The notes below the pieces were generated by a model. The model searched no databases. It was given only the letters and a program-made list of their open reading frames with translations, and was not told the DNA's origin. Below are positions 1,281 to 36,063 of a DNA stretch of 64,000 nt, one piece after another. Made by a program: the position numbers and the translations under genes. The stretch comes from Pseudomonadota bacterium (GTDB lineage Bacteria > Pseudomonadota > Gammaproteobacteria > Steroidobacterales > Steroidobacteraceae). Location of the stretch: the NCBI GenBank assembly GCA_021792755.1, contig JAJYUA010000002.1, positions 1 to 64,000 of the forward strand, given 5' to 3'. The stretch's first letter is position 1; each line of letters opens with the position of its first letter.

Positions 1281-1693
1281 ACCAAGAACTGCCAGCAGCT
1301 GCACGCATGTTGCTGAAACGCCAAGATTGGCATGAGACTGAGGATACGACATGTCCGAATGGAGCTTTGGGAAATCCAGCAAAGAAGTATTCACCCGAAG
1401 TGCGTGAGCGGGCGGTATGCCTGTTCCAGGAGCACGTGCACGAGTACCCATCACGATGGGCTGCGATGCAGTCGATCGCCGGGAAGATTGGTTGCACGGC
1501 CGAGACGTTGCGCTCCTGGGTACAGCGAGCCGAGGCCCAGGCCGACTCGACGCGCAATGCAGCGCTGGCGGATCGAGAGCGCCTGAAGCAGCTGGAGCGG
1601 GAGAACGCGGAGCTGAAGCGCGCCAATGAGATCCTGCGCAAGGCGTCGGCGTTTTTCGCCCAGGCGGAGCTCGACCGCCGCGGGAAGTATTGA
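1277..1693 (+). CDS. IS3-family transposase OrfA
   Basis: 138 residues. An N-terminal helix-turn-helix (about residues 33-75, from [12 protein letters not shown] to [11 protein letters not shown]) is followed by a leucine-zipper coiled coil ([19 protein letters not shown]), as in IS3 OrfA proteins. These bind the terminal inverted repeats and multimerise with OrfB. The first 30 or so residues do not look like the family and the true start may be further in. The stop codon overlaps the TTG that opens OrfB (TTGA at 1690-1693). No obvious A-rich slippery sequence is seen there. Confidence 0.85.
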
Positions 1694-2587
1694 TCGCGTT
1701 CATCGGCGCGCATCGAAGCGAGTGCGGGGTCGAGCGGATCTGCGAGCAATTACCGATCGCCCCGTCGACGTATTACGAACACAAGCGCCGGGAGGTCGAT
1801 CCCTCACGCCTGCCGTCTCGCGTGCAGCGCGATGGCGAGCTCACCGGCTCGATCCATCGCGTCTGGGAGGAGAACTTCCGGGTCTACGGTGCGCGCAAAG
1901 TCTGGCGGCAGCTGCACCGCGAAGGCGTTCCAGTCGCTCGCTGCACGATCGAGCGGCTGATGCGCCGAGACGGGCTGTGCGGCGTGGTTCGTGGGCGCAA
2001 GAATCGCACGACCTTCCCGGCGGATGCCGCTGATCGACCGCTGGATCGCGTTCATCGGCAGTTCGTGGCCTCCCGGCCCGATCAACTGTGGATCGCCGAC
2101 TTCACGTACGTCGCCACCTGGATGGGCTCCGTGTACCTCGCCTGCGTGATCGACGTGTTCGCCCGCTGCATCGTGGGCTGTCGCGTGAGCCGATCCATGC
2201 AGGCGGACCTGGTGTTGGATGCTCTGGAGCAGGCGCCGCACGCCCGTCAGGTCGGCAAAGGGCTCATTCATCATAGCGACAGAGGCGTTGAATATCTGTC
2301 CATTCGATACAGCGAGCGGCTCAAGGACGCCGGCGTGCAAGCCTCTATGGGCACCACGGGCGACTCCTACGATAACGCTATGGCCGAAACCATCATTGGG
2401 TTGTTCAAGACAGAGGTGATCCACGCTCGCGGCCCCTGGCGTTCACTGGATGCGGTGGAATACGCCACCCTCGAGTGGGTCGATGTTCAACAGTCGCAGA
2501 CTCCGCGAGCCCATCGGTCATGTGCCACCCGCGGAGCACGAAGCAGAGTACTATCGTCAGCAATCCGGTCCGGCCATCGCGGCCTGA
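1690..2587 (+). pseudogene. IS3-family transposase OrfB, frameshifted near the C-terminus
   Basis: DDE (rve) integrase domain of IS3 transposases. The catalytic Asp residues are in LWIADFTYV and IHHSDRGVEYL and the Glu in MAETIIGLFKTE. It opens with the HTH_21-type region (YGARKVWRQLHREG). The frame runs normally to EYATLEWVD (about 2482). After that the family sequence FNSRRLREPIGHVPPAEHEA continues in another frame to a TGA at 2585-2587. About two bases have been lost in the WVDWFN motif. The unshifted frame would run to 2694 with an unrelated tail. Activity is doubtful. Confidence 0.85.
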
Positions 2588-2627
2588 CCCAAACCCGGAG
2601 CTCTCCGGGATACCCCGGGGCGGTTCA

Positions 2628-2860
2628 ACTTGCGCCTGCGCCACGACGTGGCAATAGATCAAGCGCACGCCGCCACTCTTGCCGCCGCCTTTGATAGACC
2701 AGCGCACCTTGCGCAACCCGCCGGTGCCTGGGATGCCATCGCCCAATTGCGGATGTGCTGCCAGACACCGCTGGAATTGTGCATGGCTTTCTTCGGTCAG
2801 CAGTTCCTTGACTTGCCTGGTAAAGACCGCCGACTCGATGAAGACCCTGGAATCAGATGG
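2628..2860 (-). pseudogene. RelE/HigB-type toxin remnant, cut by the IS3 right end
   Basis: On the minus strand the sequence reads VFIESAVFTRQVKELLTEES and then HPQLGDGIPGTGGLRKVRWS followed by KSGGVRLIYCHVVAQAQ. This is the body of a RelE-superfamily ribosome-dependent mRNA interferase of the GTGGLRK...SGGVR subgroup. The coding sequence stops being toxin-like exactly where the IS3 terminal repeat begins, so the C-terminal third is missing, along with any antitoxin gene. No ATG, GTG or TTG lies in frame upstream before a TGA, so the 5' end is also decayed. Typical intact members are a little over 100 residues. Confidence 0.7.
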
Positions 2861-2992
2861 TACGTCAATGACGTATCAGCGCCCGCGTGCTGCGAGCAGC
2901 CGATGGTGCTTAATCGCGCAGAGATTGGTCTGCGCGCAACGGGAAGCACTTTTGCTGGCCCATCAAAAAAGCCGATATACCTTGAGTTTCGT

Positions 2993-3006
2993 TATATCGA
3001 GATATA
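2993..3006. promoter_or_regulatory. Palindrome upstream of padR, probable autoregulatory operator
   Basis: TATATCGAGATATA is a perfect inverted repeat that ends 10 bases before the PadR start codon, in an AT-rich stretch that also carries a related GATATAC half site about 20 bases upstream. PadR repressors usually bind ATAT-containing dyads at their own promoters. Regulation of padR and of the reductase gene that follows is inferred from this. Confidence 0.5.
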
Positions 3007-3016
3007 TCATAAGACG

Positions 3017-3601
3017 ATGTTCAAGAATCACAGACCCGGTTATGGACGCCGCGCCGTTCGCCCGGAAGATCCGCGGGACCGCGATCGCGACGGCCGCCAT
3101 CATCGCCATCGCGAGCATCGACTCGGCGGCCGTCGCGGCGGACGGCCATTCGATTACGGTGAGCTGCGACTGCTAGTCCTCGCCATGATCGGCGAGCAAC
3201 CCCGCCATGGCTACGAATTGATGAAGACCATCGAGGCCCGAATGGCCGGTAGTTACAGCCCGAGTCCGGGCGTTATCTATCCGACGCTCGCCTGGCTCGA
3301 GGATGTGGGGTACGCCCTGCCATCGATCGGGGACGGCAACCGAAAATGCTATCGGATCACACCGGCGGGCGAAGCCTTCCTCACCGCGAACAGATTCGCA
3401 GTAGATGCGCTGCTGGCACGGCTCAGTGACGCAGACGGGGGCACGCGCGAGGACGTGTCGGATCCGGTCATCCGCGGAATGGAAAACCTGAAAATGGCTC
3501 TGAGACTCAGGATGAGGCGTGGCAACCTCGATGGGGATGCCGCCGCCGCGATTGCCAAGGCACTCGATACCGCGGCACTCGAAATTGAGCGAAGCTATTG
3601 A
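3017..3601 (+). CDS. PadR-family transcriptional regulator
   Basis: 194 residues. Residues 1-45 are rich in Arg, His and Asp (PEDPRDRDRDGRHHRHREH) and probably disordered. The winged helix-turn-helix of the PadR family follows (FDYGELRLLVLAMIGEQPRH, then YELMKTIE, PGVIYPTLAWLEDVG and CYRITPAGEAFL). The C-terminal helix (about 150-194) should form the dimer arm. ATG 3017 was chosen because the PadR sequence starts there and the palindromic operator lies just upstream. The open frame extends upstream but that part is unrelated. An NAD(P)-binding reductase gene follows on the same strand, as often seen for stress-responsive PadR pairs. Confidence 0.85.
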   Translation: MFKNHRPGYGRRAVRPEDPRDRDRDGRHHRHREHRLGGRRGGRPFDYGELRLLVLAMIGEQPRHGYELMKTIEARMAGSYSPSPGVIYPTLAWLEDVGYALPSIGDGNRKCYRITPAGEAFLTANRFAVDALLARLSDADGGTREDVSDPVIRGMENLKMALRLRMRRGNLDGDAAAAIAKALDTAALEIERSY

Positions 3602-3746
3602 ACATCACAAAATGCCGCCCATCAGCATGGCCGAGGTTGAAGCGCCTATGGCTAGTCGCTATCTCGGGCAGTGAATCTGAGATCCATGGGATGTCAGATT
3701 CGGGACGCACTATTCAATCATCAGAAGAGAAGAAGGGAAATCTAGA

Positions 3747-4355
3747 ATGCGTGTTGCTCTCATCGGCGCGACCGGGAATGCCGGTTCGCGGATTTTGAAC
3801 GAGCTCGTCCAAAGAGGTCATCAGGTCACCGCCATCGTGCGCAACCCTGAACGTGTGCCCGCGCTTTCCGGCGTCGTGGCAAAGCAAGGGGATGTTTTCA
3901 ATCAGAATCAGATCGCCAAGCTGGTTGCCGGACACGATGCTGTCATTAGTGCCGTCCACTTCACGGCAAGCGATCCCCACGAACTGATCGGGGCGGTACG
4001 CCAGTCCGGAGTCAGTCGGTATCTGGTGGTGGGCGGCGCAGGCAGCCTCGAAGTCGCCCCCGGCGTCAGGCTGATCGATACGCCCAGAATTCCGCCGGCA
4101 GTCAAGGCCGAAGCATCTGCCGGGGTGACCTTCCTTGATCTGCTGCGCGAGGAACGACAGTTGGAGTGGACGTTCCTGTCGCCTTCCGTGATGTTCATTC
4201 CCGGCACGCGCACGGGAAAATTCCGACTTGGGAAGGATAAACTGCTCAGCAATGAGCAGGGTAGCAGCATCTCTTTCGAAGATTATGCCGTGGCTCTCGT
4301 GGACGAGTTGGAGACACCGCAGCACTCGCGCCAACGTTTCACCGTCGGGTACTGA
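3747..4355 (+). CDS. NAD(P)-binding reductase, NmrA/YwnB-like atypical SDR
   Basis: 202 residues. The Rossmann motif GATGNAGSRIL is at residues 7-17, with VTAIVRNPER (second strand, NADP-type Arg) and GDVFN after it. The fold and length match the NAD(P)H-binding family (NmrA-like, YwnB/YesF type) whose members act as quinone or flavin reductases or redox sensors. The substrate cannot be told. It lies 145 bases after padR on the same strand, so PadR control is plausible. The sequence AGAAGAGAAGGGAAA upstream of the ATG is a purine-rich ribosome site. Confidence 0.8.
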   Translation: MRVALIGATGNAGSRILNELVQRGHQVTAIVRNPERVPALSGVVAKQGDVFNQNQIAKLVAGHDAVISAVHFTASDPHELIGAVRQSGVSRYLVVGGAGSLEVAPGVRLIDTPRIPPAVKAEASAGVTFLDLLREERQLEWTFLSPSVMFIPGTRTGKFRLGKDKLLSNEQGSSISFEDYAVALVDELETPQHSRQRFTVGY

Positions 4356-4546
4356 TTCCAATGCGCGCAACTGACCTGAGTCCAGACTTTGCGATCAGTT
4401 TGGACCTGGAGAAACAGTGGCTTTGCTGAGCCTGCGCGAGGCGCAGGTGGTCGCCAAATTTGGCCCTTGGGCGCAATTTGGCACAGTGAGAGCCAATGCC
4501 GGCCAACAGCGACCGACAGCCTTTCGCTCGCAATGCTTCGGTTCGA

Positions 4547-5767
4547 TTAGATGGCTGCGCGTTTGATCTGCCTGTCGATTGCTTCGCGGACTTCTGCGGG
4601 CAACAAATCCTTCGCTGCGTGATCACGCCAAGCATCCACGATGTGGGCCGATGTCTCCTGCGCAATCGTCCATAGCTGGTTGACCGACAGACGTGCCTTG
4701 TCTGCGAAGCGGCGCACCTGATCGGGCGTGATTTGGCTGATGTTCTTCTCGCCACCGAAGTTGAGGGCCAGATTGTCCTTCGGGAGGTAGGGGACCGTCG
4801 CCACCAGATCATAGGCGGGTGACAGAACGGGGACCCGGCTGTCCGGGTAGAGCAGGGTCCAGTTCTTGAGATGCATGTCACCATTGCCGGTCAGCACCGT
4901 GAAGACCAACCGCCGCATGAATTCGTGGACAGCGCCCGCACCCGCCTCGGCAGCGAGCACGGCGGCGATATTGGCGTAATTGCGTCCTTTGTACTTGTCG
5001 TCCGGATAGATGCCGAATACTTGGGCGAAGTCTTCCATGTGCACGCGGCCTCCGTGTGCCTTGCGGTCGAAACGGCGGACGGCAAGCGCCTGAACGCCTA
5101 CGCATTTCATGTCTTCAGGCACGCCAGCGATCTCGTCGACCGGCAGCAGTCGGATCTCGGGTACGTCGATACCGATACTGCGCGCAAGCTCCATCATCGC
5201 GTATTCATTTTCAGCAATGGCTGGATAATGGGGCGACGGCAGCTTAACGATCCACGAGCCGCCGATGCCGTTGGCCGGTATCGTAAGATGTCCCTTGTCC
5301 TTCACAATCGCGGAAAACTTCATCTGCACGCCTGCCAGCGAGAATTTCAGTGGGGCAGGGGCATTATCCGTACCGCCGTCTTTCTCGACCTTCGGCTCCG
5401 GCGCCCATTTGTCGTCGAGCGGTTCGACCGTGACGGCTCCGGGCAGATCGGCGCCTAATTGCCAGAGGAGGATGAACTCCGGTCCGGGCTTCACGCCCGC
5501 TCTAGCCGCCAGGTAGTCGCGCAAGGCACCTTCCGGCAGCAGATTGGAAAAAAAAGCTGGCAGGCGCATCGCTGTCGGTTTCACCGTCGTCACCAAACCA
5601 GAAGCGCCCTTATAGGACAGGCTTAGCGTCGGTCGGTTGGTGTCCTCGACATAGGCCTCATCGAAGGCAAAAAGATATCTGTCACCGGAAAGGCGGTTGA
5701 TGACGCCGATCCGTGTGCCGTGGAGGAGGACAGCGAGCGCGGCTGGCTGTTTGGTGGAGCCGCTCAT
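4547..5767 (-). CDS. hipA: HipA-family serine/threonine kinase toxin
   Basis: 406 residues with a complete HipA layout. The N-terminal HipA_N subdomain (VLLHGTRIGVINRLSGDRYL to LLPEGALRDYLAARAGV) is followed by the P-loop-like segment AGVQMKFSAI, catalytic Asp297 in GNGDMHLKNW and metal-binding Asp320 in AYDLVATVPYL. In E. coli HipA phosphorylates glutamyl-tRNA synthetase and halts translation. The target here is unknown. It is translated from an ATG overlapping the stop of the upstream antitoxin gene by four bases (ATGA), so the two are co-expressed. It looks intact, unlike the other mobile genes around it. Confidence 0.9.
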   Translation of the reverse strand: MSGSTKQPAALAVLLHGTRIGVINRLSGDRYLFAFDEAYVEDTNRPTLSLSYKGASGLVTTVKPTAMRLPAFFSNLLPEGALRDYLAARAGVKPGPEFILLWQLGADLPGAVTVEPLDDKWAPEPKVEKDGGTDNAPAPLKFSLAGVQMKFSAIVKDKGHLTIPANGIGGSWIVKLPSPHYPAIAENEYAMMELARSIGIDVPEIRLLPVDEIAGVPEDMKCVGVQALAVRRFDRKAHGGRVHMEDFAQVFGIYPDDKYKGRNYANIAAVLAAEAGAGAVHEFMRRLVFTVLTGNGDMHLKNWTLLYPDSRVPVLSPAYDLVATVPYLPKDNLALNFGGEKNISQITPDQVRRFADKARLSVNQLWTIAQETSAHIVDAWRDHAAKDLLPAEVREAIDRQIKRAAI

Positions 5768-6132
5768 GATGCGTCACCACCATCACCACCACCATCACCA
5801 CCGCCATCATCATCATCGTCGTCGGCAGCATAGAGCGGGCGCTCGTCGGTTTTGCGAGTGTGGCTGTCACGCACCAGGGCGTTGACAGCAGGAACGAGGG
5901 ACTGTGGCACCAGAACCAGATCCATGCCGAGCACCCGCACCAGATCGAGCAAGGTATCGAATCGCGGCACGATACGGCCGGTCTCAATACCGGAGATATG
6001 GGTCTGGGGAAGACCTGCGTGCTTTCCGGCCTCGGTCTGGCTCCAGCTACGGCGAAGGCGGGCCGCTTTCAGCTCCCGACTGATGGTCTCAGGTAGGCGG
6101 TCCATGCGGACTGGCTTTATATGCGAGTTCAT
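5764..6132 (-). CDS. hipB: HipB-like antitoxin (XRE helix-turn-helix) with Asp/Gly repeat tail
   Basis: 122 residues. The XRE/Cro-type helix-turn-helix covers about residues 15-75 (LRRSWSQTEAGKHAGLPQTH, GIETGRIVPRFDTLLDLVRV). It should repress the operon and neutralise HipA. The last 20 residues are a run of Asp and Gly (ADDDDDDGGGDGGGDGGDAS) encoded by a GAT/GGT triplet array, unlike typical HipB C-termini. The tail overlaps the hipA start. The gene starts at ATG 6132, just downstream of an AT-rich promoter region. Confidence 0.88.
   Translation of the reverse strand: MNSHIKPVRMDRLPETISRELKAARLRRSWSQTEAGKHAGLPQTHISGIETGRIVPRFDTLLDLVRVLGMDLVLVPQSLVPAVNALVRDSHTRKTDERPLYAADDDDDDGGGDGGGDGGDAS
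5768..5823. repeat. CAY/CRY trinucleotide repeat inside hipB 3' end
   Basis: On the plus strand about 18 near-perfect triplets CAC/CAT/CGC/CGT run in a row. Read on the minus strand they give the poly-Asp/Gly tail of the antitoxin. Such an array is prone to slippage by whole triplets, which would change tail length without breaking the frame. Confidence 0.8.
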
Positions 6133-6134
6133 CT

Positions 6135-6225
6135 ATGTGATCCCTCCATAGATAATATCGCATATATCCAATTGAGTTGCAATATGTGACATTAGCTAAA
6201 TTGGACTGAGGTAGCTAAATTCACA
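6135..6225 (-). promoter_or_regulatory. hipBA promoter/operator region with direct repeats
   Basis: This AT-rich stretch lies directly upstream of hipB. It contains the direct repeat TAGCTAAATT at 6193-6202 and 6212-6221 (19 bases apart) and several ATAT/GATA-rich segments. I do not see the E. coli HipB operator spacing TATCC-N8-GGATA. The repeats are candidates for antitoxin binding by position only. Confidence 0.4.
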
Positions 6226-6229
6226 TATA

Positions 6230-6511
6230 ATGGTGTTCGGCGGACGGATAGCGCAGCAGCGGTCCGCTGACCGAGTGCCTGAACCTGCTTCCAGGCGGTC
6301 ACCCGCCGAGGAGCTGAATCTCAGCGGTCCCCATGACAACTCAGACGTAAATTGGGAGATCACCGCCAGGGACGTTCAGAAAATTCTGACCGCAGCCCAG
6401 CTCGCTGAGTTGAACCCGGCCCTGACGGAGGCAACTCTGCGCCGGTGGATTTTCAACGCTGAGAGCCGCGGCTTTGCCAAATGCTCGGTTCCAATTCGCG
6501 GGCGTGTCTAG
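6230..6511 (+). pseudogene. Helix-turn-helix (excisionase-like) protein remnant
   Basis: The frame gives a first part without recognisable features, then ITARDVQKILTAAQLAELNP, ALTEATLRRWIFNAESRGF and AKCSVPIRGRV followed by a stop. This matches the start of small DNA-binding proteins that in related form continue with a beta-wing and an FxxWL-type end. Here the coding sequence stops right after RGRV, so the C-terminus is probably lost. The N-terminal 40 residues may be noncoding. It is a low-confidence assignment in a region of mobile debris. Confidence 0.35.
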
Positions 6512-6569
6512 CTCGCATCATTCGTGCACGGTGCGATGTTGGGACAGATCACTCCGGGTAGCCGGCTTT

Positions 6570-6581
6570 GGGGGGGGGGGG
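6570..6581 (+). repeat. Homopolymer of 12 G
   Basis: A run of twelve G lies between the HTH remnant and the IS1380 remnant, outside any intact gene. It may be a slippage-prone site or an assembly uncertainty. Confidence 0.7.
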
Positions 6582-6730
6582 CAGAGGCAGTTCTCGATGA
6601 CCGATCGGTGGCTTACCGACGTTTTTTATGTGCATAACCGTTGATTTATGCCAACATCGGTGTGCTGTGGGCGAGCCAACTCCTCATCGAAGGTCGATGA
6701 CGAGTGCAGAGCGAGGATATCGAGGTGTTG

Positions 6731-7840
6731 CTACGCCGGCACGGCGCCCACCGAGCGGGCGATGCGCAGCCAGTCGCAGAGGTAGGGAGAGGATTGCGGC
6801 AGGTGCAACACGATGCGCCGCACGGAACGCTCGATCCAGACGCCGAGCTTCAGGAACCGCTCACGCAGGGTGCTGACTTGGGCAGTCGCACACTCGCTGC
6901 CGCGGGCGCTCAGGCGCAACTCCTGCATCAGAACGTAGGCGGCGGCGGTGAGCAGGACCCGCAGCTGGTTGGCCAGAAAGCTCGTGCAGCTGGTGCGGTC
7001 GATCTCAAGGCCGTGGTGAAGCTCTTTGATCCTGTTCTCGATCTTGCCGCGACCGCAGTAGACCTTCTTATACAGATGCCGGGGAGAGCCTCAGGTTGGT
7101 CACCACGAAGCGCTCATTATCCTTCGGCTCCCGGCCCTCCAGGCGCACCACTTCCGCCTTGATCAGCACGCGACGCTTGCGGCCCTTCCAGCTCTTGGCC
7201 GCGCAGCGCGTCTCGCCAAACACGTTCGCGGTCTTGCCGCGACGTTTCGAGAGCCGTCGCGCCCGGCCCATCCGCCGCTGGGCACGGCGCTTCAAGACCT
7301 TGTTTTCCGCCATGCCGATGATGTAGTCGACCTTTGCCTCATCCTCCAGGAAGTTCAACAGCTCCGGACCGCCAAACCCACCGTCGAGCCGAACGAGGAT
7401 GCGCGCCTTGGGGAACGTCGCCCGCAGCCGCTCGATCACACTCTCGGCCAGCCCCTCGCCCATGCGGTAAAGATCCGCCCGACGCGGGGCGTTCTCAAAG
7501 CCCGAGAGCGTCGGCTGCGAAGCCAGCGCTGCACCCGTCAGAGGATCGCGCCCGATCAGCAGCTTTTGGATAGGGTCCTCGGCCAACCGCGCCGCATCAT
7601 TGCAGTCGGCGTAGCCGCACGCGATCCCGAACAGTCGCTGTCGGACCAGGTCCCGGATCGAGTGCTCCACCTTGCCAGCCTGCCGACCGTCACTGATGCA
7701 GGCGGCGCGGCGGAATAACGCGGTGCAAGGGCTGTAGGAGGGCGAGAATGACGCTGTGCGCCTCGATGCGCTCGCGCGCGGTGAGGTCGACCGGGCGGAG
7801 TTTGTCCGAGCGGGGTTCGACCGCAGGCATGGCTGCGCAT
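6731..7840 (-). pseudogene. IS1380-family transposase, broken
   Basis: The central part on the minus strand is a clear IS1380 (DDE, DUF4277/Transposase_DDE) sequence: KVEHSIRDLVRQRLFGIACG, LVRLDGGFGGPELLNFLEDE, VDYIIGMAENKVLKRRAQ and ERFVVTNLRLS. At about 7085 the frame shifts. The family sequence continues in another frame as HLYKKVYCGRGKIENRIKEL, then HGLEIDRTSCTSFLANQLRV, to the natural end near 6731. The N-terminal 60 or so residues are also out of frame or replaced (a frame from ATG 7830 stops early). Two lesions mean no active enzyme. I could not define terminal repeats. Confidence 0.8.
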
Positions 7841-7888
7841 TGCCGGCCCGCATGGGACTCAAAGCAATATCGCCGTGTTTATAAGAGA

Positions 7889-8070: not shown

Positions 8071-9111
8071 ATGAGATTCGGCATTTCATTGACGTTTTCC
8101 AATCCCAAGGAAACGTTCATTCCCTATTCGCGCCTGATGGAAAGCCAGATTGCCCAGTCGGTGCTCGCGGAAGATGTGGGGTTCGATCATGTGTGGGTGG
8201 CCGAACATCACGGCAGCGAGCACTACTTTCCCGCGGCGATGTCGACTCTGGCGGTGCTCGCCACGCGCACGCGCCGCGTACGCCTCGGCAGCTACATCGT
8301 CGTCATGCCGCTGTATCACCCGATTCACATCGCCGAGCAGGCGGCGATCGTCGACCTGTTGTCGAACGGGCGCCTCGAGCTCGGCCTGGGGATCGGCAAC
8401 TTCCAGGATGAGTTCGAGGCCTTCGGCATCTCCCGCAAGGAGCGCGGCTCGCGCATGGAGGAGGGCCTGCAGGTGATCGCCGGCCTGTGGGAGCAGAAGA
8501 GTTTTTCCTTCTCCGGCAAGCACTTCAACCTGAAGAATTTCAGCCTGGTGCCGCGGCCGGTGCAGCCCAGGGCACCGATCTGGATGGCGGGCAATGCGCC
8601 GCGTGCGATCGACAGGGCGGCCCGGTTCGGGTACCACCTGGCGGGCTCGGGCACGGGCTTTGATCTGTACGAGCAGAAGCTGCGCGAGCACGGCCGCGAT
8701 CCCGGTCAATTCAACAAATCGATGATCGTGTGCATGCTGCTCGCCAACACACGCGAAGAGGCGTGGCGGCGGGCCGGACCGGCGATGCTGAGCTTCCTCG
8801 GCTACTACAAGGCCGAGTTCGACCGACATCCGGACTTCGAGATGTTTCGCAAAAAGCCCGGCGGTTATTTCGGCGTGGATCCATTGCCCGATTCCCGGGA
8901 CGTCGAAAGCCTGAAGAAGCTGAACTTCCTCGGCTCGCCGTTCATCATCGGCACGCCGGACGATGCGCTGGAGGCTTGCGGGAGGATCCAGCAACTCGGC
9001 ATCACCCATCCGGTGCTTTCCCAACATTTCGGCGGAATGGATCCGGCGTACAGCGAGGATACGATCCGACTGATGGGCCAGGCGGTGATCCCCGCCTTTC
9101 GCGACCGGTAA
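8071..9111 (+). CDS. LLM-class flavin/F420-dependent oxidoreductase
   Basis: 346 residues of the bacterial luciferase-like TIM-barrel family. The signature runs MRFGISLTFSNP, then GFDHVWVAEHHGSEHYFPAA, ATRTRRVRLGSYIVVMPLYH and LELGLGIGNFQDEFEAFGI. The AEHH motif resembles FMN/F420-using alkanal monooxygenase-like enzymes with substrate channels for hydrophobic compounds. Whether it uses FMN or F420 cannot be settled from motifs. F420 biosynthesis genes follow directly on the same strand, which makes F420 reasonable. A CAGGAG ribosome site precedes ATG 8071. Copy A of the repeated element lies upstream. The substrate is unknown. Confidence 0.88.
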   Translation: MRFGISLTFSNPKETFIPYSRLMESQIAQSVLAEDVGFDHVWVAEHHGSEHYFPAAMSTLAVLATRTRRVRLGSYIVVMPLYHPIHIAEQAAIVDLLSNGRLELGLGIGNFQDEFEAFGISRKERGSRMEEGLQVIAGLWEQKSFSFSGKHFNLKNFSLVPRPVQPRAPIWMAGNAPRAIDRAARFGYHLAGSGTGFDLYEQKLREHGRDPGQFNKSMIVCMLLANTREEAWRRAGPAMLSFLGYYKAEFDRHPDFEMFRKKPGGYFGVDPLPDSRDVESLKKLNFLGSPFIIGTPDDALEACGRIQQLGITHPVLSQHFGGMDPAYSEDTIRLMGQAVIPAFRDR

Positions 9112-9396: not shown

Positions 9397-10014
9397 ATGA
9401 GCTGCTGGGCGCTGGTTCCGGTCAAGGCGCGTGCCGAGGGCAAGTCGCGTCTGGCGCCGGTGCTCGATCCGCCCGCGCGGATCGCGCTGGTACGGTCCAT
9501 GCTGGACCATGTCTTGGGCGTGCTGGCGGCGGCACCCGGCGTCGATCATGTGGCGATCGCCAGCCCGGAGCGCGACCTGGTATCCGCGGACATTCACCTG
9601 CTGCCAGAGCGGGGTCGCGGACTGAACCGGGCGTTGGGCAGTGCGGTAGCGGCGCTGAGGCGTCTTGGTGCACGCGAAGTGCTGGTGCTGCCGGGCGATC
9701 TGCCATGCGTGGGTACGGACGATGTGGCGGTGCTGCTGGCGCAGATGCGCGCCGGCGGTTGTGCGCTGGCGAGCGATCGGCAGGGCACGGGCACCAATGC
9801 GATTGCGCTTGATTTGCAGCGGCTCGGCCCGGCGGGGTTTCGATTTCTGTTCGGCCGCAACAGCTTTGCTCGCCATGCTCGCCAGGCGTGCGCGCTGGGA
9901 TTGGGCCCGCAGATCGCTCGACGACCCGGTCTGGGCTTCGATCTGGATGAACCGCAGGCGCTCAGCGCCTTCAAGACCGTGCATCGACCCGATGCGATTA
10001 GGCAGGCTTCATGA
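9397..10014 (+). CDS. cofC: 2-phospho-L-lactate (or 3-phosphoglycerate) guanylyltransferase CofC
   Basis: 205 residues of the CofC/FbiD nucleotidyltransferase family: N-terminal ALVPVKARAEGKSRLAPVLD, then EVLVLPGDLPCVGTDDVAVL and SDRQGTGTNAIALDL, with RNSFARHARQA near the end. It activates a three-carbon phospho-acid with GTP, the first committed step of building the F420 side chain. In the proteobacterium Paraburkholderia rhizoxinica the enzyme prefers 3-phosphoglycerate, giving 3PG-F420. Which substrate is used here cannot be decided by eye. Its TGA overlaps the ATG of fbiC (ATGA at 10011-10014), so the two are co-translated. Confidence 0.92.
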   Translation: MSCWALVPVKARAEGKSRLAPVLDPPARIALVRSMLDHVLGVLAAAPGVDHVAIASPERDLVSADIHLLPERGRGLNRALGSAVAALRRLGAREVLVLPGDLPCVGTDDVAVLLAQMRAGGCALASDRQGTGTNAIALDLQRLGPAGFRFLFGRNSFARHARQACALGLGPQIARRPGLGFDLDEPQALSAFKTVHRPDAIRQAS

Positions 10015-12389
10015 GCACGTGGCAGAGGATACGCGATCGGTCCGCACTGGGCGGGGGGCTGTCGGGCGAGGAGGCGCTGAGCCTGCCCGCCATGCCGCTC
10101 GAAGCCCTGATGGAGGTGAGCGAAGCCCTGACGCTCGAGGGCTTCGGCCGCACGGTGACCTATTCGCGCAAGGTGTTCATCCCGCTGACGCAGCTCTGCC
10201 GCGACGTCTGCCACTACTGCACCTTCGCCAAGGCGCCCGGGAAGCTGGCGCGGGCCTATCTGTCGGCGGACGAGGCGGTGGCGATTGCGCGGGCCGGGGC
10301 GCAAGCCGGCTGCAAGGAAGCTCTGTTCACGCTCGGCGACCAGCCGGAGCTGCGCTACGCCGCCGCGCGTCAGGCACTCGAGGCAATGGGCTTTGCGAGC
10401 ACCCTCGAGTATCTGGCGCATGTCGCGCAGCGGGTCCAGCAGGAGACCGGGCTCCTGCCCCATCTCAATCCCGGCGTGATGTCCCGCGAAGACATCGAAA
10501 AATTGCGCCGGGTGTCGGTCTCGATGGGCTTGATGCTGGAGACGGCCGCGACACGGCTGTGCGCCAAGGGAGGGCCGCATTTCGGCTCGCCCGACAAGGC
10601 CCCGGCGGCGCGTCTGGCGACGCTCAGCGCGGCCGGTGAGGCGCGGGTGCCCTTCACCACGGGCCTTCTGGTCGGGATCGGCGAGACACGGACCGAGCGC
10701 ATCGAAGCCTTGCTGGCGCTGCGTGAGATTCAGCAGCGCCATGGACACATCCAGGAGGTGATCCTGCAGAACTTCAAGCCCAAGCCGGGCACGCGCATGG
10801 CGAATGCGCCGGAGCCTGCGCTCAGCGAGCACCTGTGGACCATTGCGGCGGCGCGCCTCATCTTCGGCAGCGCGATGAGCCTGCAGGCGCCGCCCAACCT
10901 GCAGAGCGACCTCGCCGCGCTCATTAGGGCCGGAGTCAATGACTGGGGCGGGGTGTCACCGGTAACGCTCGATCACGTCAATCCCGAAGCGCCCTGGCCA
11001 CAGCTCGATGCGCTGGCACGAAAGACGGCGGACGCCGGCCGCGTGCTGCTCGAGCGTCTGGCGATCGCGCCCGCCTATGCACGCGCCGCCGAGCGCTGGG
11101 TGGACTCGACTCAGGCGAGACCGGTCGTGCACAGGACCGATGCACGAGGTCTCGCACGGGCCTGCGGCTGGATCACCGGTGCCGCCATGCCGGTGCCCGC
11201 CTATGCGCATCAGTGGCTGCGCGGCGGCAGACCCTCGGCCTCGACCGCGGCGATCCTGGCGCGTGCCGAGGACGGCGATGACCTGAGCGAAGAGCAGATC
11301 GTGGCGCTGTTCGGCGTGGACGGTCCGGACCTCGGCGCGCTGATCGGCGCCGCCGATGCGCTGCGCAGCCGCGTCGCCGGCGAGACCGTCACTTTCGTGG
11401 TCAACCGCAACATCAACTACACCAACATCTGCCTCTACAAATGCGCGTTCTGCGCCTTCGCCAAGTCCGGCTCGCGCGCCATGCGCGGGCCGGCCTACCG
11501 GCTCGACCTGCGGCAGATCGCCGCGCGCACCCGGGAGGCCTGGGAGCGCGGTGCCACCGAGGTGTGCCTGCAGGGCGGCATCCATCCGGACTACACCGGC
11601 GAGACCTACCTCGACATCGTGCGGGCCGTGAAGACCGCGGTTCCGGCCATGCACGTGCACGCCTTCTCGCCCCAGGAGATCACCCATGGCGCGCGCACTC
11701 TGGGGCTGTCACTCGATGACTACGTTACACGGCTGGTGCAGGCGGGGCTTTCGACCCTGCCGGGCACCGCGGCGGAGATTCTCGATGATGAAGTGCGCGC
11801 CGTCCTCTCTCCCGACAAGATCAATACCGAGGAATGGTTCGCGGTGATGCGGGCAGCCCATGGCGCAGGCCTGCAATCGACCGCCACTATCATGTACGGT
11901 CATGTGGATCGGCCCTGGCACTGGGCGCGCCATCTGCTGCGCATTCGCGAGCATCAGAAGAGCTTTGGCGGCTTCACCGAGTTCGTGCCCCTGCCGTTCG
12001 TGCACATGGAAGCGCCGATGTGGAAAAAGCGCGCCGTGCGGCCGGGCCCGACATTCCGCGAAGCCGTGCTCATGCATGCGGTGGCGCGCCTCGTGCTGCA
12101 TCCGCACATCGTCAACGTCCAGACCTCCTGGGTGAAGATGGGCGCCGGCGGAGCCGCCTTCTGCCTGCAGGCCGGAGCGAACGATCTTGGCGGGGTGCTG
12201 ATGGACGAGTCGATCACCCGCGCCGCCGGCGGCCTCAATGGCCAGGAATTCGACACCACCCGCATGCGCGCCCTGGCGAGCGCAATCGGTCGCGATGCGC
12301 GCCAGCGCACCACCCTGTATGGCGAGTTGCCGCGATACCGCGAGCTGACGCGGGACAGCTGCAGCGGCGCGAGCTGCGAGCAGCGATGA
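10011..12389 (+). CDS. fbiC: 7,8-didemethyl-8-hydroxy-5-deazariboflavin (FO) synthase, fused CofG-CofH
   Basis: 792 residues with two radical SAM domains, as in actinobacterial FbiC rather than the separate archaeal CofG and CofH. The CofG half has CRDVCHYC (Cys63, 67, 70) after VTYSRKVFIPLTQL. The CofH half has CLYKCAFC (Cys474, 478, 481) after VVNRNINYTNI, then EVCLQGGIHPDYTGETYLDI and HVHAFSPQEI. Each cluster binds a 4Fe-4S that cleaves SAM. Together they join tyrosine and the ribityl-diaminouracil to form FO, the F420 chromophore. Both cysteine triads are intact. The gene overlaps cofC. Confidence 0.96.
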   Translation: MSTWQRIRDRSALGGGLSGEEALSLPAMPLEALMEVSEALTLEGFGRTVTYSRKVFIPLTQLCRDVCHYCTFAKAPGKLARAYLSADEAVAIARAGAQAGCKEALFTLGDQPELRYAAARQALEAMGFASTLEYLAHVAQRVQQETGLLPHLNPGVMSREDIEKLRRVSVSMGLMLETAATRLCAKGGPHFGSPDKAPAARLATLSAAGEARVPFTTGLLVGIGETRTERIEALLALREIQQRHGHIQEVILQNFKPKPGTRMANAPEPALSEHLWTIAAARLIFGSAMSLQAPPNLQSDLAALIRAGVNDWGGVSPVTLDHVNPEAPWPQLDALARKTADAGRVLLERLAIAPAYARAAERWVDSTQARPVVHRTDARGLARACGWITGAAMPVPAYAHQWLRGGRPSASTAAILARAEDGDDLSEEQIVALFGVDGPDLGALIGAADALRSRVAGETVTFVVNRNINYTNICLYKCAFCAFAKSGSRAMRGPAYRLDLRQIAARTREAWERGATEVCLQGGIHPDYTGETYLDIVRAVKTAVPAMHVHAFSPQEITHGARTLGLSLDDYVTRLVQAGLSTLPGTAAEILDDEVRAVLSPDKINTEEWFAVMRAAHGAGLQSTATIMYGHVDRPWHWARHLLRIREHQKSFGGFTEFVPLPFVHMEAPMWKKRAVRPGPTFREAVLMHAVARLVLHPHIVNVQTSWVKMGAGGAAFCLQAGANDLGGVLMDESITRAAGGLNGQEFDTTRMRALASAIGRDARQRTTLYGELPRYRELTRDSCSGASCEQR

Positions 12390-12542
12390 GAGCGGCGCAG
12401 CGCACGCCCGGACGGAGCAATTTCGCCACAGGTACTCGACGCATGCCCCACGGCGGCGCGCGCCTCGGGGCGCAAGGCATGGCGGAAACGGCTGATCAGG
12501 AGGAGCCGCGTGAACGACACCCGGGTACCGTAAGGGCGGCCC

Positions 12543-12962
12543 GTGCGCAGCGTGATCATGGCAGGCGCGCGCTACGATACCGGAAAGAAGGTCCCGCCCC
12601 CGGTCGAGGGCTTCAGCGCACAACCCGATGCGCGCATGATCCGGAAAGGACTGCCGGACGCCGAAGACCTGCTGGTGTTTGACAACGAGGCAGAGCGCGG
12701 ACATTTGCCGCTCGACCCTGCAGCGGTGTGCGGCGCGCGCGCGCTCGGGATCGATCCGGCGACCCGGCGGGACAGGCGGCGGTACGTCGGCACGAAGCGA
12801 ACGCTCTTCAGCCCGTTCATCGGCGCCGCCCGGCGGCTTGCCAATGCAGACACGCTGATCGGCGGGGGGACCCGGGCCCGGCTCGTCCGCGTGAGTGCCG
12901 CGGCAAAGGGCATCCGGCAGCACCTGCCGCCCTTTGCCGGCAGAGGCTGGGCACGCTCATAG
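12543..12962 (+). CDS. Hypothetical protein between fbiC and the EthD-like gene
   Basis: 139 residues from GTG 12543 (or ATG 12558). I do not recognise the family. It is rich in Arg, Ala and Gly and has no signal peptide, membrane segment or known motif. Codon third positions are strongly G/C like the neighbours, and the gene would fit the gap in the same direction. That is the only support: reverse-strand frames over the same place are also open, as is common in high-GC DNA. Confidence 0.3.
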   Translation: MRSVIMAGARYDTGKKVPPPVEGFSAQPDARMIRKGLPDAEDLLVFDNEAERGHLPLDPAAVCGARALGIDPATRRDRRRYVGTKRTLFSPFIGAARRLANADTLIGGGTRARLVRVSAAAKGIRQHLPPFAGRGWARS

Positions 12963-13003
12963 CGGGCCGTCGGAAGATGCGCAGAGCCGAAGAGGAAACC
13001 AGC

Positions 13004-13783
13004 ATGGGCCATCCGCCGCAGCGGCTGCTCAAGAGCATCGTGATGCACGATATCCCGATGGACGCGATCGCCGCCATGGAGCGTTGGTACTACAAGGATC
13101 ATTCGCCCGAGGTGGTGCGCCGCTTCGGCCCCTGGCAGGCGCGCCATGATTCCTACCTTCCGGTGGATGCGCCGGCCGAGGCGCGCGCCTACGGCTTCTA
13201 CAACTGGAGGGTGACCGAGGGCTGGTGGCGGGAATTGCCCCGGCCCGGCCCGCAGGGGAACCTGTGCTTCACGCTGCCGCCGGTGTGGCCCAGGGTTGCG
13301 ACCTGTTTTATTCCGTGGCAGCCGACCGAGGACTTTATCGGACACGATGTGTCTGTCGGACAGAAGAACGTGCTGCGTTGGTATGTCCTGATGAGGTATC
13401 CGAGGGGTGTGCGCTTCGAGGACGCGGAGGAGTGGTTTCTGAAGACCCACGTGCCGCAGGTCAAGCGGCAGCGCGGATTGTGGCGATTCTTCAGCTACCG
13501 CACGCTCAGGGAGCCGCGGGCACTGCCGGGCAACTGGCCGCCCGCAGCCACGCCGCCGGCCGGCAGCGTCATGGCGCAGTGGGATCGTGTGTGTGAGCTG
13601 TGGTATGAGTCCTTCGCCGACTGGCGGCACGCGGTGATCGAGGCGCCGCCTGCCTATACCGTGCCGCCGTGGGCCACCTATGGCTGTTACCCGTTTCTCG
13701 ATCCCTGGGTGGATTTCGTCAGCTCCTTTCTGCTGCAGCGGCCGACGGACGAATTCCTGCGGGATGCGCGCGGCTATGGTTGA
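13004..13783 (+). CDS. EthD-like (dimeric alpha+beta barrel) protein
   Basis: 259 residues. The first half has an EthD/Dabb-type pattern (LLKSIVMHDIPMDAIAAMER, then WYYKDHSPEVVRRFGPWQAR, DSYLPVDAP), and a related pattern recurs around 125-160 (VLMRYPRGVRFEDAEEWFLK, THVPQVKRQRGLWRFFSYRT), suggesting two ferredoxin-like repeats. EthD-type proteins accompany oxidative degradation systems, often with unknown biochemical roles. ATG 13004 follows GAGGAAACCAGC. It sits between fbiC and fgd on the same strand. A role with the F420/LLM chemistry is inferred from position only. Confidence 0.6.
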   Translation: MGHPPQRLLKSIVMHDIPMDAIAAMERWYYKDHSPEVVRRFGPWQARHDSYLPVDAPAEARAYGFYNWRVTEGWWRELPRPGPQGNLCFTLPPVWPRVATCFIPWQPTEDFIGHDVSVGQKNVLRWYVLMRYPRGVRFEDAEEWFLKTHVPQVKRQRGLWRFFSYRTLREPRALPGNWPPAATPPAGSVMAQWDRVCELWYESFADWRHAVIEAPPAYTVPPWATYGCYPFLDPWVDFVSSFLLQRPTDEFLRDARGYG

Positions 13784-13893
13784 GGGCGGCCTCGGCAGCC
13801 CGCAGCCGGTGCAGGTCATGGCGGGCGGCGCATCGCGGCTGAGCGGCGGCAATGACGGAAACGGATCGCATGCGGACAAGTATGAGGTGCATC

Positions 13894-14898
13894 ATGTTGA
13901 AACTGGGTTATAAGGCGTCGGCCGAGCAGTTCTGCGGCAAAGAACTGCTCGAGTACGGCGTGATCGCCGAGCAGGTGGGCCTCGATTCGGTGTGGATCAG
14001 CGATCATTTTCAGCCATGGCGGCACAGCGGCGGCCAGGCGCCGTTCTCGCTCGCCTGGCTCGGGGCGCTCGGCGCGAAGACCTCACGGGTGCTGATGGGC
14101 ACCAGCGTGCTGACACCGACGTTCCGCTATCACCCCTCGATCGTGGCGCAGGCGTTCGGCACCCTTGGCGCGATGTTCCCCGGCCGCGTGGCGCTCGGCA
14201 TCGGCACCGGCGAGTCGCTCAATGAAGTGCCCTCGAGCGGCATGGCATGGCCGGAGCAGAAGGAGCGCACCGCGCGATTCAAGGAGGCCGTGGAGCTGAT
14301 CCAGAGGCTCTGGCGGGAGGAGCGCGTGACCTATGAGGGACGCTTTTACCGTACCGATAGGGCCACGATCTACGAGCGTCCGCAGGGCAGCGTGCCGATC
14401 TATGTGGCCGGTGCCGGCCCGCTCATGGCGAAGTTCGCCGGCGAGCATGCGCAGGGCTTCATCTGCACCAGCGGCAAGAACTGGAGCCTGTACAGCGAGA
14501 CCCTGCTGCCGAACGTCGACGCGGGTCTGCAGAAGGCCGGGCGGTCGAGCCAGGACATCGAGCGGATGATCGAGATCAAATTGTCGTTCGATCTGGACCG
14601 GCAGCGGGCGCTGCAGGACACGCGCCTCTGGGGCGCGCTCGCCTTGACGCCGGACGAGAAGATGAACGTGCAGGATCCGCTGCAAATGGAGAAGCTCGCC
14701 GACGGGCTGCCCATCGAGCGCGCCGCCTCGCGCTGGATCGTGAGCGACGATGCCGGGGAAATCCTCGAGAAGCTTCGTCCATACCTCGAGCTCGGCTTCA
14801 CGCACCTGGTGTTCCACGCTCCGGGTCCGGACCAGGCGCGGTTCCTGCGGCTGTTTTCGCAGCATGTGGCGCCGAGGCTGCGCCAGGCCTTCGGCTGA
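13894..14898 (+). CDS. fgd: F420-dependent glucose-6-phosphate dehydrogenase (FGD)
   Basis: 334 residues, nearly the length of M. tuberculosis FGD1 (336) and very similar along its whole length: LKLGYKASAEQF, SDHFQPWRHSGGQAPFSLAW, VLMGTSVLTPTFRY, GTGESLNE, LVFHAPGPDQARFL. Known FGD1 residues are kept: Asp37/His38 and Trp42 (FGD1 39/40/44), Glu107 (109), and the phosphate-binding Lys195, Lys256 and Arg280 (198, 259, 283). It should oxidise glucose 6-phosphate to 6-phosphogluconolactone while reducing F420 to F420H2. ATG 13894 was chosen because of GAGGT five bases upstream and the fit to FGD1; ATGs further up give 14 extra residues. The gnd gene follows 52 bases later. Confidence 0.93.
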   Translation: MLKLGYKASAEQFCGKELLEYGVIAEQVGLDSVWISDHFQPWRHSGGQAPFSLAWLGALGAKTSRVLMGTSVLTPTFRYHPSIVAQAFGTLGAMFPGRVALGIGTGESLNEVPSSGMAWPEQKERTARFKEAVELIQRLWREERVTYEGRFYRTDRATIYERPQGSVPIYVAGAGPLMAKFAGEHAQGFICTSGKNWSLYSETLLPNVDAGLQKAGRSSQDIERMIEIKLSFDLDRQRALQDTRLWGALALTPDEKMNVQDPLQMEKLADGLPIERAASRWIVSDDAGEILEKLRPYLELGFTHLVFHAPGPDQARFLRLFSQHVAPRLRQAFG

Positions 14899-14950
14899 GC
14901 CGCGTCCGCAGTCTGTGCCGTAACGGAAAAATGGGCGAGGAGATCTGCAG

Positions 14951-15937
14951 ATGCAACTGGGTATGATCGGCCTGGGCCGCATGGGCGCGAACATGGTTCG
15001 GCGCCTGATGCGCTCGGGACATGATTGCGTCGTATATGACGTCGACGGCGCGGCCGTCGACCGGCTTGCGGCCGAAGGGGCCACGGGCGCGAGGACGCTC
15101 GATGAGCTCGTCGCCCGGTTGACCCCGCCGCGCGCGGTCTGGCTGATGGTTGCGCACGGCGCAATCACCGAGACGAGCGTACGCGAGATGAGGTTGCGCC
15201 TTGCCGCCGGTGATGTGCTGATCGACGGCGGCAACAGTTTTTACCAGGATGACGTGCGTCGCGCCGCCGAGCTGCGCGAACGGGGCATTGCCTATCTCGA
15301 TGTCGGCACGAGTGGCGGGATTGCCGGGCTGGAGCGCGGCTACTGCATGATGATCGGTGGGGAGCGGGCGGCATTCGAGCGGCTCGACTCTGTTTTCGCC
15401 TCTCTCGCGCCGGGTGGCGGGCAGATCGTGCGCACCCGCGGCCGGCAAGCGCGCGACCCGCGCATCGAGCGCGGCTATCTGTATTGCGGCCCCGCCGGGG
15501 CGGGTCATTTCGTCAAGATGATTCACAACGGCATCGAATACGGCATGATGCAGGCCATGGCCGAAGGATTCGACATCCTGCGCAACGTGTCCAAAGGGAG
15601 CGTTCCCGAGGACCGTCGCTACGATCTGGATCTCGCCGACGTGGCCGAGCTCTGGCGTCGGGGCAGCGTCGTCGCGTCGTGGCTGCTGGATCTGGCGGCC
15701 GAGGCGCTGGTCGAGGATCCTCAGCTGGCCGGCTTTTCCGGGGTGGTCGAGGATTCGGGCGAGGGCCGCTGGACGGTGCAGGCGGCGGTCGAGGAAGCCG
15801 TGCCGGCCGAAGTGCTGACCGCCGCGCTCTATGCGCGGTTCCGCTCGCGCCAGGAGCATACCTTCGCCGAGAAGATGCTCTCGGCGATGCGCGCGAAATT
15901 CGGCGGTCACAAGGAGCCGGCGCTGCCGCGGCGCTGA
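14951..15937 (+). CDS. gnd: 6-phosphogluconate dehydrogenase, decarboxylating (short, NAD-type)
   Basis: 328 residues, the short form (GndA/YqeC type, TIGR00872-like) rather than the 470-residue NADP enzyme. The Rossmann motif is [15 protein letters not shown], followed by [30 protein letters not shown], the active-site segment [20 protein letters not shown] (Lys, His, Asn) and a C-terminal helical domain. It converts 6-phosphogluconate to ribulose 5-phosphate and CO2. Short forms usually prefer NAD. Placed directly after fgd with a GAGGAG ribosome site, it completes an oxidative pentose phosphate branch whose first step feeds F420. Confidence 0.9.
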
Positions 15938-35301: not shown

Positions 35302-36063
35302 TTGCGCTCCCTGACGCTCAGCGCTTTGCCGGGAATCGGCGAGATCAATCCGGGCGATGACCTGGGCGGGGTGCTTTGCGGGACGCTCACCGCCCTTGGA
35401 ATGACGCCCCGGGCGCGCGATGTGCTGGTCGTCACGCAAAAGGTGGTCTCGAAGGCCGAGGACCGCTACGTGAGCCTCGACACCGTGCAGGTATCCGCGC
35501 GCGCTGCCGAGATCGCCGCGGCGACGGGCAAGGATCCGCGACTGGTCGAGCTGGTGCTGGCCGAGTCGACCGAGGTGCTGCGCGCCAAGGAGAGGAATGT
35601 ATTGATCGTGCGCCATCGGCTGGGGTTTGTCATGGCCAATGCGGGCATCGATTGCTCGAACGTGCCGGGCGCGCAGCGCGTGCTGCTGCTGCCGCGCGAT
35701 CCGGACAGCTCCGCTGCAAGACTCCGCGCTTCGGTCGCGGAGCGATTCGGCCTCGAGGAGTTCGGAGTCGTCATCTCCGACAGCTTCGGGCGCCCATGGC
35801 GCAAGGGCGTCACCCATGTGGCGCTTGGCGCGGCCGGGATTCCGTCGCTTCTGGACCGGCGCGGCGAGCAGGACCGGGGTGGTCGCAGGCTGCAGGTCAC
35901 CGAGGTGGCCATGGCGGATCTGCTCGCCTGCGCAGCCGGTCTTCTCATGGGAGAAGGCGCCGAAGGGCTTCCGGCGGTGCTCATCCGCGGATTCACCTGG
36001 ACGGCCTCGAGCACACCCGCCAGTGCCCTGATTCGTCCAATCGAGGAGGACCTTTTCCATTGA
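35302..36063 (+). CDS. cofE: Coenzyme F420-0:L-glutamate ligase CofE
   Basis: 253 residues from TTG 35302, chosen because the family opening (LTLSALPGIGEINPGDDLGG) starts there; no strong ribosome site is seen. Motifs follow the family: DVLVVTQKVVSKAEDRYVSL, GFVMANAGIDCSNV, VVISDSFGRPWRKGVTHVAL, EVAMADLLACAAGLLMGEGA. It adds one or more L-glutamates to F420-0 with GTP. Unlike actinobacterial FbiB it has no C-terminal FMN/nitroreductase-like domain, so it resembles the archaeal and proteobacterial stand-alone form. Its TGA overlaps the start of cofD. Confidence 0.92.
   Translation: MRSLTLSALPGIGEINPGDDLGGVLCGTLTALGMTPRARDVLVVTQKVVSKAEDRYVSLDTVQVSARAAEIAAATGKDPRLVELVLAESTEVLRAKERNVLIVRHRLGFVMANAGIDCSNVPGAQRVLLLPRDPDSSAARLRASVAERFGLEEFGVVISDSFGRPWRKGVTHVALGAAGIPSLLDRRGEQDRGGRRLQVTEVAMADLLACAAGLLMGEGAEGLPAVLIRGFTWTASSTPASALIRPIEEDLFH

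What the first reader, a model, noticed from the sequence alone, without database searches (positions are those of the whole stretch)
9397..15937. F420-linked pentose phosphate module (cofC-fbiC ... fgd-gnd) in a proteobacterium
The sequence shows cofC overlapping a fused cofG-cofH, and 1.5 kb later a near full-length homologue of actinobacterial F420-dependent glucose-6-phosphate dehydrogenase, with His38, Glu107, Lys195, Lys256 and Arg280 kept, followed 52 bp on by a short NAD-type 6-phosphogluconate dehydrogenase. FGD is the main F420-reducing enzyme of mycobacteria; finding it with gnd and F420 biosynthesis in what looks like a gammaproteobacterium would mean a complete local supply of F420H2 from glucose 6-phosphate. 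That the pair works as a pathway, and that F420H2 feeds LLM reductases here, is inference.
Basis: partly seen in the sequence, partly recalled or inferred. Interest (0 to 1): 0.85.

Follow-up and report, generated by a model that had tools for sequence, protein, structure and literature searches.

The report
F420 sugar-phosphate dehydrogenase beside gnd
A bacterium outside the group best known for it carries genes to make the unusual electron carrier F420, an enzyme that should charge F420 from a common sugar phosphate, and the enzyme for the next oxidation of that sugar; such genes were known elsewhere, so this is a good new example rather than a new kind of system.

Summary
In detail: cofC overlaps fbiC, fgd scores above NCBI's F420-G6PDH cut-off with all named active-site residues, and a short gnd follows after 52 bp. 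Three phosphate-binding residues are kept in 94 of 94 FGD rows and lost in 4 of 4 near paralogues. The surprise shrinks: Fgd is already predicted in Alphaproteobacteria (PMC8498797), and an active FGD beside gnd is published for Rhodococcus jostii (PMC5352752). The window's FGD groups with mostly proteobacterial FGDs, not Rhodococcus/Nocardia (joining them only borderline-rejected, p 0.049). The genome also has three zwf and three short gnd. New details: near relatives of this gnd are followed by zwf in 4 of 4 fetched genomes, so fgd stands beside gnd where zwf does elsewhere; gnd lies within 2 kb of fgd in 4 of 86 loci, against 0 of 86 for each of 14 control genes; and 83 of 88 FGDs outside Rhodococcus/Nocardia have Ala where studied FGDs have Gly. 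Activity, sugar range and F420H2 consumers are untested.

The parts
8071..9111 (+). LLM-class oxidoreductase, candidate F420H2 or FMN user
   Evidence: PF00296 212.7 bits; best NCBIfam model TIGR03619 at 159.2, under its cut-off of 166.9; 94% identical in the sister genome G003, beside the same genes
9397..10014 (+). cofC, guanylyltransferase of F420 biosynthesis
   Evidence: TIGR03552 128 bits against 105
10011..12389 (+). fbiC (fused cofG-cofH), FO synthase
   Evidence: NF006687 1107.6 bits against 1018; overlaps cofC by 4 bp
13004..13783 (+). ORF of unknown role between fbiC and fgd (open from 12932; weak Chalcone_N match); not clearly part of the module
   Evidence: PF18232 27.6 bits against 25; coding-like G+C by codon position; no match to it reached 45 bits in the sister locus L037
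13894..14898 (+). [quoted passage not shown]
   Evidence: TIGR03554 454.4 bits against 420; PDB 5LXE and 3B4Y; active-site residues
14951..15937 (+). short 6-phosphogluconate dehydrogenase (gnd), 52 bp after fgd
   Evidence: TIGR00872 411.4 bits against 297.2; PDB 4E21, 6VPB, 8IHE
35302..36063 (+). cofE, F420-0 glutamate ligase, single domain
   Evidence: TIGR01916 253 bits against 180.65; PF01996
36060..37019 (+). cofD, phospholactate-type transferase, overlapping cofE (TTG start read by me)
   Evidence: TIGR01819 285.1 bits against 257.45; PF01933

Best explanation
A core F420 biosynthesis set in two places (cofC-fbiC; cofE-cofD) plus a two-gene F420-linked oxidative pentose phosphate unit, fgd-gnd. 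Fgd is expected to take a hydride from glucose 6-phosphate onto F420; the lactone is opened by a 6-phosphogluconolactonase coded elsewhere (contig C17) or spontaneously; Gnd then oxidises 6-phosphogluconate to ribulose 5-phosphate with NAD(P)+, probably NAD+. The net local effect is F420H2 plus NAD(P)H and a pentose phosphate. F420H2 is then spent by F420H2-dependent reductases, of which the two LLM proteins are only candidates. Shown here: gene identities, kept active-site residues, pairing, genome content. Inferred: catalysis, co-transcription, nucleotide preference, consumers. The FGD belongs to a large, mostly proteobacterial FGD group, and its gnd partner to a type that in relatives accompanies zwf.
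For: Profile scores over curated cut-offs for all six core proteins. K198, K259 and R283 equivalents in 94 of 94 FGD rows, absent in 4 of 4 near paralogues. An FGD shown to be active, Rh-FGD1 (RHA1_RS43115), lies between gnd and pgi (passage of PMC5352752). Nearest non-resident relatives of this gnd are followed by zwf in 4 of 4 fetched loci. gnd within 2 kb of fgd in 4 of 86 loci, against 0 of 86 for each of 14 control genes and for zwf and pgl. Window-type gnd (90% identical) found only in G003 among 57 other genomes of the genus, the next best being 65%, and G003 also carries the window-type fgd beside it. One Pgl-family gene; no Fno found.
Against: No activity, expression or F420 was measured. 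Three zwf and two further short gnd make the pair dispensable for the pentose phosphate pathway. Ala, not Gly, at the position said to mark strict FGDs. gnd pairing is rare: 82 of 86 loci have no gnd within 2 kb. Of six Rhodococcus/Nocardia FGD plasmid loci viewed, one has gnd directly beside fgd; WAY2 has it one gene away; in one the record carries no annotation. The CofE has no second domain for dehydro-F420 reduction, and I did not search for a separate reductase.
Confidence: 0.72

Rival explanations
1. The enzyme is an F420-dependent sugar-6-phosphate dehydrogenase of broader range (FSD-like), oxidising fructose or mannose 6-phosphate as well as G6P, so gnd would handle only part of the flux.
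For: At the position where studied FGDs have Gly177 and FSDs Ser (passage of PMC6279831) the window has Ala, as do 83 of 94 rows (8 Gly, 3 Ser). The same paper says phosphate-site residues do not separate FGD from FSD.
Against: Score over the FGD equivalog cut-off; neighbour gnd fits G6P.
Confidence: 0.3
2. fgd and gnd are neighbours by chance on a mobile-element-rich stretch, each working on its own.
For: Integrase, two transposase ORFs and a HipA/HTH pair lie at 426-7862; pairing is kept only in the sister genome G003 (90-92% identity), which is too close to show selection.
Against: gnd within 2 kb in L101, L103 and L118 as well, with different gnd types, against 0 of 86 for each of 14 control genes; Rhodococcus pairs.
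Confidence: 0.15
3. The fgd-gnd unit came as a piece from Actinobacteria.
For: Rhodococcus jostii has gnd-fgd-pgi. Held-together trees are not firmly rejected: FGD p 0.049, gnd p 0.134.
Against: FGD groups with L044, L045, L059 and L078 (100/97) and Rhodococcus/Nocardia FGDs form their own 100/100 group; gene order differs (gnd-fgd there, fgd-gnd here).
Confidence: 0.07
4. The locus is a decaying remnant in which F420 is no longer made or used.
For: What look like broken ORFs between fbiC and fgd here and in G003, and a lone cofD fragment in G003; cofE-cofD lie 19 kb away.
Against: All six core genes are full length and over cut-off; codon-position G+C is normal; a second complete fbiC exists.
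Confidence: 0.06

Closest known systems
Rhodococcus jostii RHA1 Rh-FGD1 locus (gnd-fgd-pgi, plasmid pRHL3)
   Same: An FGD of the same family (56% identical) directly beside a short, NAD-type annotated gnd; the enzyme was shown to be active
   Different: Gene order reversed, pgi instead of F420 biosynthesis nearby, Gly instead of Ala at the specificity position, gnd only 46% identical
Alphaproteobacterial fgd-cofE-cofD-cofC operons
   Same: Same FGD group, 65-71% identical; F420 genes close by
   Different: There fgd is joined to cofE (68 of 80 loci have cofE within 2 kb on the same strand); here fgd is joined to gnd and cofE-cofD lie 20 kb off
Mycobacterial FGD1 (PDB 3B4Y)
   Same: Fold family and all active-site residues
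   Different: Ala for Gly177; host also lacks a found Fno but has far fewer LLM proteins (3 PF00296 matches; mycobacterial numbers recalled, not searched)
gnd-zwf operons of Bryobacterales MAG G048, G050, G430, G438
   Same: Nearest non-resident gnd relatives
   Different: The neighbour is zwf instead of fgd, in order gnd-zwf

Membership tests
[quoted passage not shown]
   454.4 against 420 bits, positions 2-331 of 331
FGD | Active-site and phosphate-binding residues (E13, H40, W44, E109, K198, K259, R283 in 3B4Y numbering; residue roles partly recalled) | tested here: met
FGD in the strict sense, against FSD | Gly177 (Ser in FSDs, PMC6279831) | tested here: inconclusive
   Ala, neither Gly nor Ser
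FGD | Reduction of F420 by G6P | not testable with these tools
   needs purified enzyme and F420
Short 6-phosphogluconate dehydrogenase (TIGR00872, annotated NAD+-dependent) | Score over cut-off, short length | tested here: met
   411.4 against 297.2 bits, 328 aa
Short 6-phosphogluconate dehydrogenase (TIGR00872, annotated NAD+-dependent) | NAD+ rather than NADP+ preference | tested here: inconclusive
   YDVD after the Gly motif, where the ten long forms compared have (N)RT; that this marks NAD is recalled. Another NCBIfam model, NF007161, scores higher (469 bits) and is named NADP-dependent
F420 biosynthesis | cofC, cofD, cofE, fbiC (cofG+cofH) present | tested here: met
   all in the window
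F420 biosynthesis | Dehydro-F420 reductase where the PEP route is used (recalled) | not tested
   CofE is single-domain; no genome-wide search was made
Fno (TIGR01915) as rival F420 reducer | Presence in the genome | tested here: not met
   0 matches in the own genome; the search rang in 7 of 14 controls, 3 over cut-off

The most novel reading that the evidence does not exclude
fgd has repeatedly and independently been joined to unrelated 6-phosphogluconate dehydrogenases (short ones here, in L118 and in Rhodococcus; long ones in L101 and L103), in this lineage taking the place beside gnd that zwf has in relatives. This would mean selection for a dedicated F420-linked oxidative pentose phosphate route whose only F420 reducer is Fgd, run by a large uncharacterised Ala-type FGD group with its own sugar range.
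Probability: 0.35. Interest if true: 0.6.

Novelty: new member of a known kind. Interest (0 to 1): 0.4.

Why it matters
The 2021 review says that no F420-reducing dehydrogenase outside Actinobacteria had been studied by experiment in bacteria (PMC8498797, section 23 read whole). This locus offers a compact test case: one expected F420 reducer, one partner, a core biosynthesis set in one window and only two other LLM proteins found in the genome. It also lets one ask why fgd and gnd keep meeting. It does not change what is known of F420 chemistry.

Tried and rejected
Recent transfer from Actinobacteria: not favoured by the trees, but only borderline rejected. That the window's fgd and the genus's other fgd lineage (G020, G448, G449) are separate gains: they fall apart in the tree, but one clade is not rejected (p 0.119). 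That window gnd groups with the gnd found 4-9 kb from fgd in four alphaproteobacterial loci (L068, L081, L094, L100): rejected at p 0.034. That fgd is the only G6P dehydrogenase of the genome: wrong, three PF02781 matches over cut-off. That F420H2 feeds FDOR-A enzymes: PF04075 gave nothing, but no control rang either, so this shows nothing. FDOR-B families were not searched. Promoter and terminator scans gave numbers near those of shuffles (1 against 0.9; 6 against 3.7) and say nothing. LLM1 and LLM2 match both FMN- and F420-using solved proteins, so their cofactor stays open. No structure prediction was run, as FGD has a solved relative at about 56% identity.

Errors of mine, mended: two of three zwf queries were wrong ORFs, so only the third counted there; correct ones were used. 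In one search one control protein was out of frame; one search repeated the set with all 14 in frame and the same result. In one search the line 'no hit' lists CofE only because it was counted apart.
Full report
OBSERVATION. The window is contig C21, bases 1-64000, of a genome of 3.76 Mb in 57 contigs, 96.14% complete and 0.09% contaminated. The fgd start is most likely 13894, not 13852. The window's FGD aligns with the solved proteins 5LXE (E 9.5e-133) and 3B4Y (E 2.5e-126) over nearly their whole length. With numbering from 13894 the residues are E11, H38, W42, E107, K195, K256 and R280. In an alignment of 98 rows, E13, H40, W44 and E109 (3B4Y numbering) are in every row, while K198, K259 and R283 are in 94 of 94 FGD rows and in 0 of 4 more distant paralogues. 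These three therefore separate the family from its neighbours.

cofE (35302-36063) and cofD (36060-37019) lie 20 kb downstream and overlap. The window thus holds cofC, cofD, cofE and fbiC. The genome has a second full fbiC on contig C24 (1081.6 bits), near an LLM protein and sugar isomerase-like ORFs and without matches to the window's cofC, cofD or cofE in the 16 kb read.

GENOME CONTEXT. The own genome has three PF02781 (zwf) matches over cut-off, three short gnd over cut-off, one PF01182 match (Pgl family), three PF00296 matches (the LLM at 8071, fgd, and the LLM on C24), and no Fno match, in a search that rang in 7 of 14 control genomes. PF04075 gave nothing, but no control rang, so nothing follows. 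Among 58 genomes of the genus, own included, 11 have fbiC over cut-off. In a search of 40 relatives, own included, 3 had fgd over cut-off: G000, G003, G020. Two more, G448 and G449, were seen beside their fbiC. The other genus members were not all searched for fgd. In 369 genomes drawn from the class, own included, 3 have it.

RELATIVES. The 80 are biased to close relatives. In 68 of these 80, cofE lies within 2 kb of fgd on the same strand, so the usual partner of fgd is F420 biosynthesis. In the genus there are several layouts: cofC-fbiC-fgd-cofE-cofD (G448, G449), cofE-cofD-cofC with fbiC and no fgd seen in the stretch (G001, G002, G428, G441), and the window/G003 layout. The window's cofE and cofD are 59-65% identical to those of the fgd-less layout and 51-53% to those of G448 and G449.

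TREES. In trees of 98 and 68 FGD rows the window and G003 sit with L045 and L059/L196 (99/93 and 96/90), then L044 and L078 (98/96 and 100/97); Rhodococcus and Nocardia FGDs form their own group (100/100). Holding the window with the latter costs 25.8 log units, p 0.049, which is borderline. In a tree of 46 short gnd, the window and G003 copies stand apart from both resident gnd types of the genus; the nearest is from the Bryobacterales MAG (93/85, not a firm branch); holding the window gnd with Rhodococcus gnd is not rejected (p 0.134), holding it with the four alphaproteobacterial gnd near fgd is rejected at p 0.034. Long branches meet in that tree. A gnd 90% identical to the window's was found only in G003 among the other 57 genomes of the genus; the next is 65%.

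WHY THE PAIR IS LIKELY FUNCTIONAL. Four near, non-resident gnd relatives were looked at in context (G048, G050, G430, G438): all four are followed by zwf on the same strand. In the window the neighbour is fgd instead. Fourteen other genes of the window gave 0 of 86 within 2 kb each, and 7 matches anywhere; zwf and pgl gave none. Flanks differ in length, and 82 of 86 loci lack such a pair, so the pairing is rare though not random. In Rhodococcus jostii RHA1 gnd-fgd-pgi is annotated, and the paper on that enzyme says it is active and flanked by putative 6-phosphogluconate dehydrogenase and G6P isomerase genes (passages of PMC5352752); that PDB 5LXE is this enzyme is recalled. In Rhodococcus sp. 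WAY2 the order is gnd-glpX-fgd-tkt-tal. The other four stretches viewed show no gene annotated gnd beside fgd; in one of them (DK17) a gnd match lies 1.1 kb upstream of fgd by my own search, and in Nocardia no gene was annotated.

SPECIFICITY. PMC6279831 (passages) reports that strict FGDs have Gly177 and the broader FSDs Ser. The window has Ala, as do 83 of 94 FGD rows; 8 have Gly (six Rhodococcus/Nocardia, L118, L195) and 3 Ser. So 83 of the 88 rows outside Rhodococcus/Nocardia are of an Ala type. I found no experiment on such an enzyme in the passages read, and the review of 2021 says none outside Actinobacteria had been done. Whether the enzyme is strict for G6P is open.

LITERATURE. The review PMC8498797 (passages; section 23 whole) lists Fgd for many Actinomycetales, Chloroflexi and, with a question mark, Alphaproteobacteria; the word Gammaproteobacteria does not occur in its main text. 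Searches for F420 with glucose-6-phosphate dehydrogenase, Gammaproteobacteria and metagenome-assembled gave 0 papers; F420 with fbiC and Gammaproteobacteria gave 4, of which I read one passage of PMC8359052 and only listings of the rest. The library lacks most subscription papers; Ney et al. 2017 was not held. So I do not claim that gammaproteobacterial Fgd is unpublished.

VERDICT. A real, well-supported F420 biosynthesis set with an Fgd-Gnd pair. New member of a known kind, with a mild twist in its partner. Confidence about 0.72 in the best explanation as a whole; catalysis of a sugar 6-phosphate by F420 is likelier than that, and use of F420H2 by the LLM proteins less likely.

Noticed in passing
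L173:6239-8638 (G000 contig C24): A second full-length fbiC in the same genome, near an LLM protein, two ORFs weakly like inosose dehydratase and one like hydroxypyruvate isomerase, with no match to the window's cofC, cofD or cofE in 16 kb; G003 also has two fbiC.
   Followed up: partly
window 12390-13850; L037:8596-9632: Between fbiC and fgd the window and the sister genome differ: an ORF with a weak Chalcone_N match here, two ORFs that look like pieces of one broken gene there. By eye, ORF 12543-12962 resembles one of those pieces; Pfam found nothing in the two pieces scanned.
   Followed up: partly
window 426-7862: Integrase, two transposase ORFs, and a HipA protein with an HTH partner lie upstream in a stretch of lower G+C (about 0.60-0.63 against 0.65-0.69 for most of the rest), suggesting a mobile segment beside the F420 genes.
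   Followed up: partly
L037:14906-15734: In the sister genome G003 a fragment matching the end of cofD and an ORF with a phage-integrase domain lie beyond the LLM gene.
   Followed up: no
L068:12770-19496: In Enhydrobacter aerosaccus a gnd copy lies 4.5 kb from fgd among several ORFs that look like LLM proteins by eye.
   Followed up: no
L044, L059, L103: FGD-bearing contigs titled Bryobacterales, Actinobacteria and Planctomycetota carry FGDs of the mostly proteobacterial group; either gene transfer or misassigned MAG contigs.
   Followed up: no
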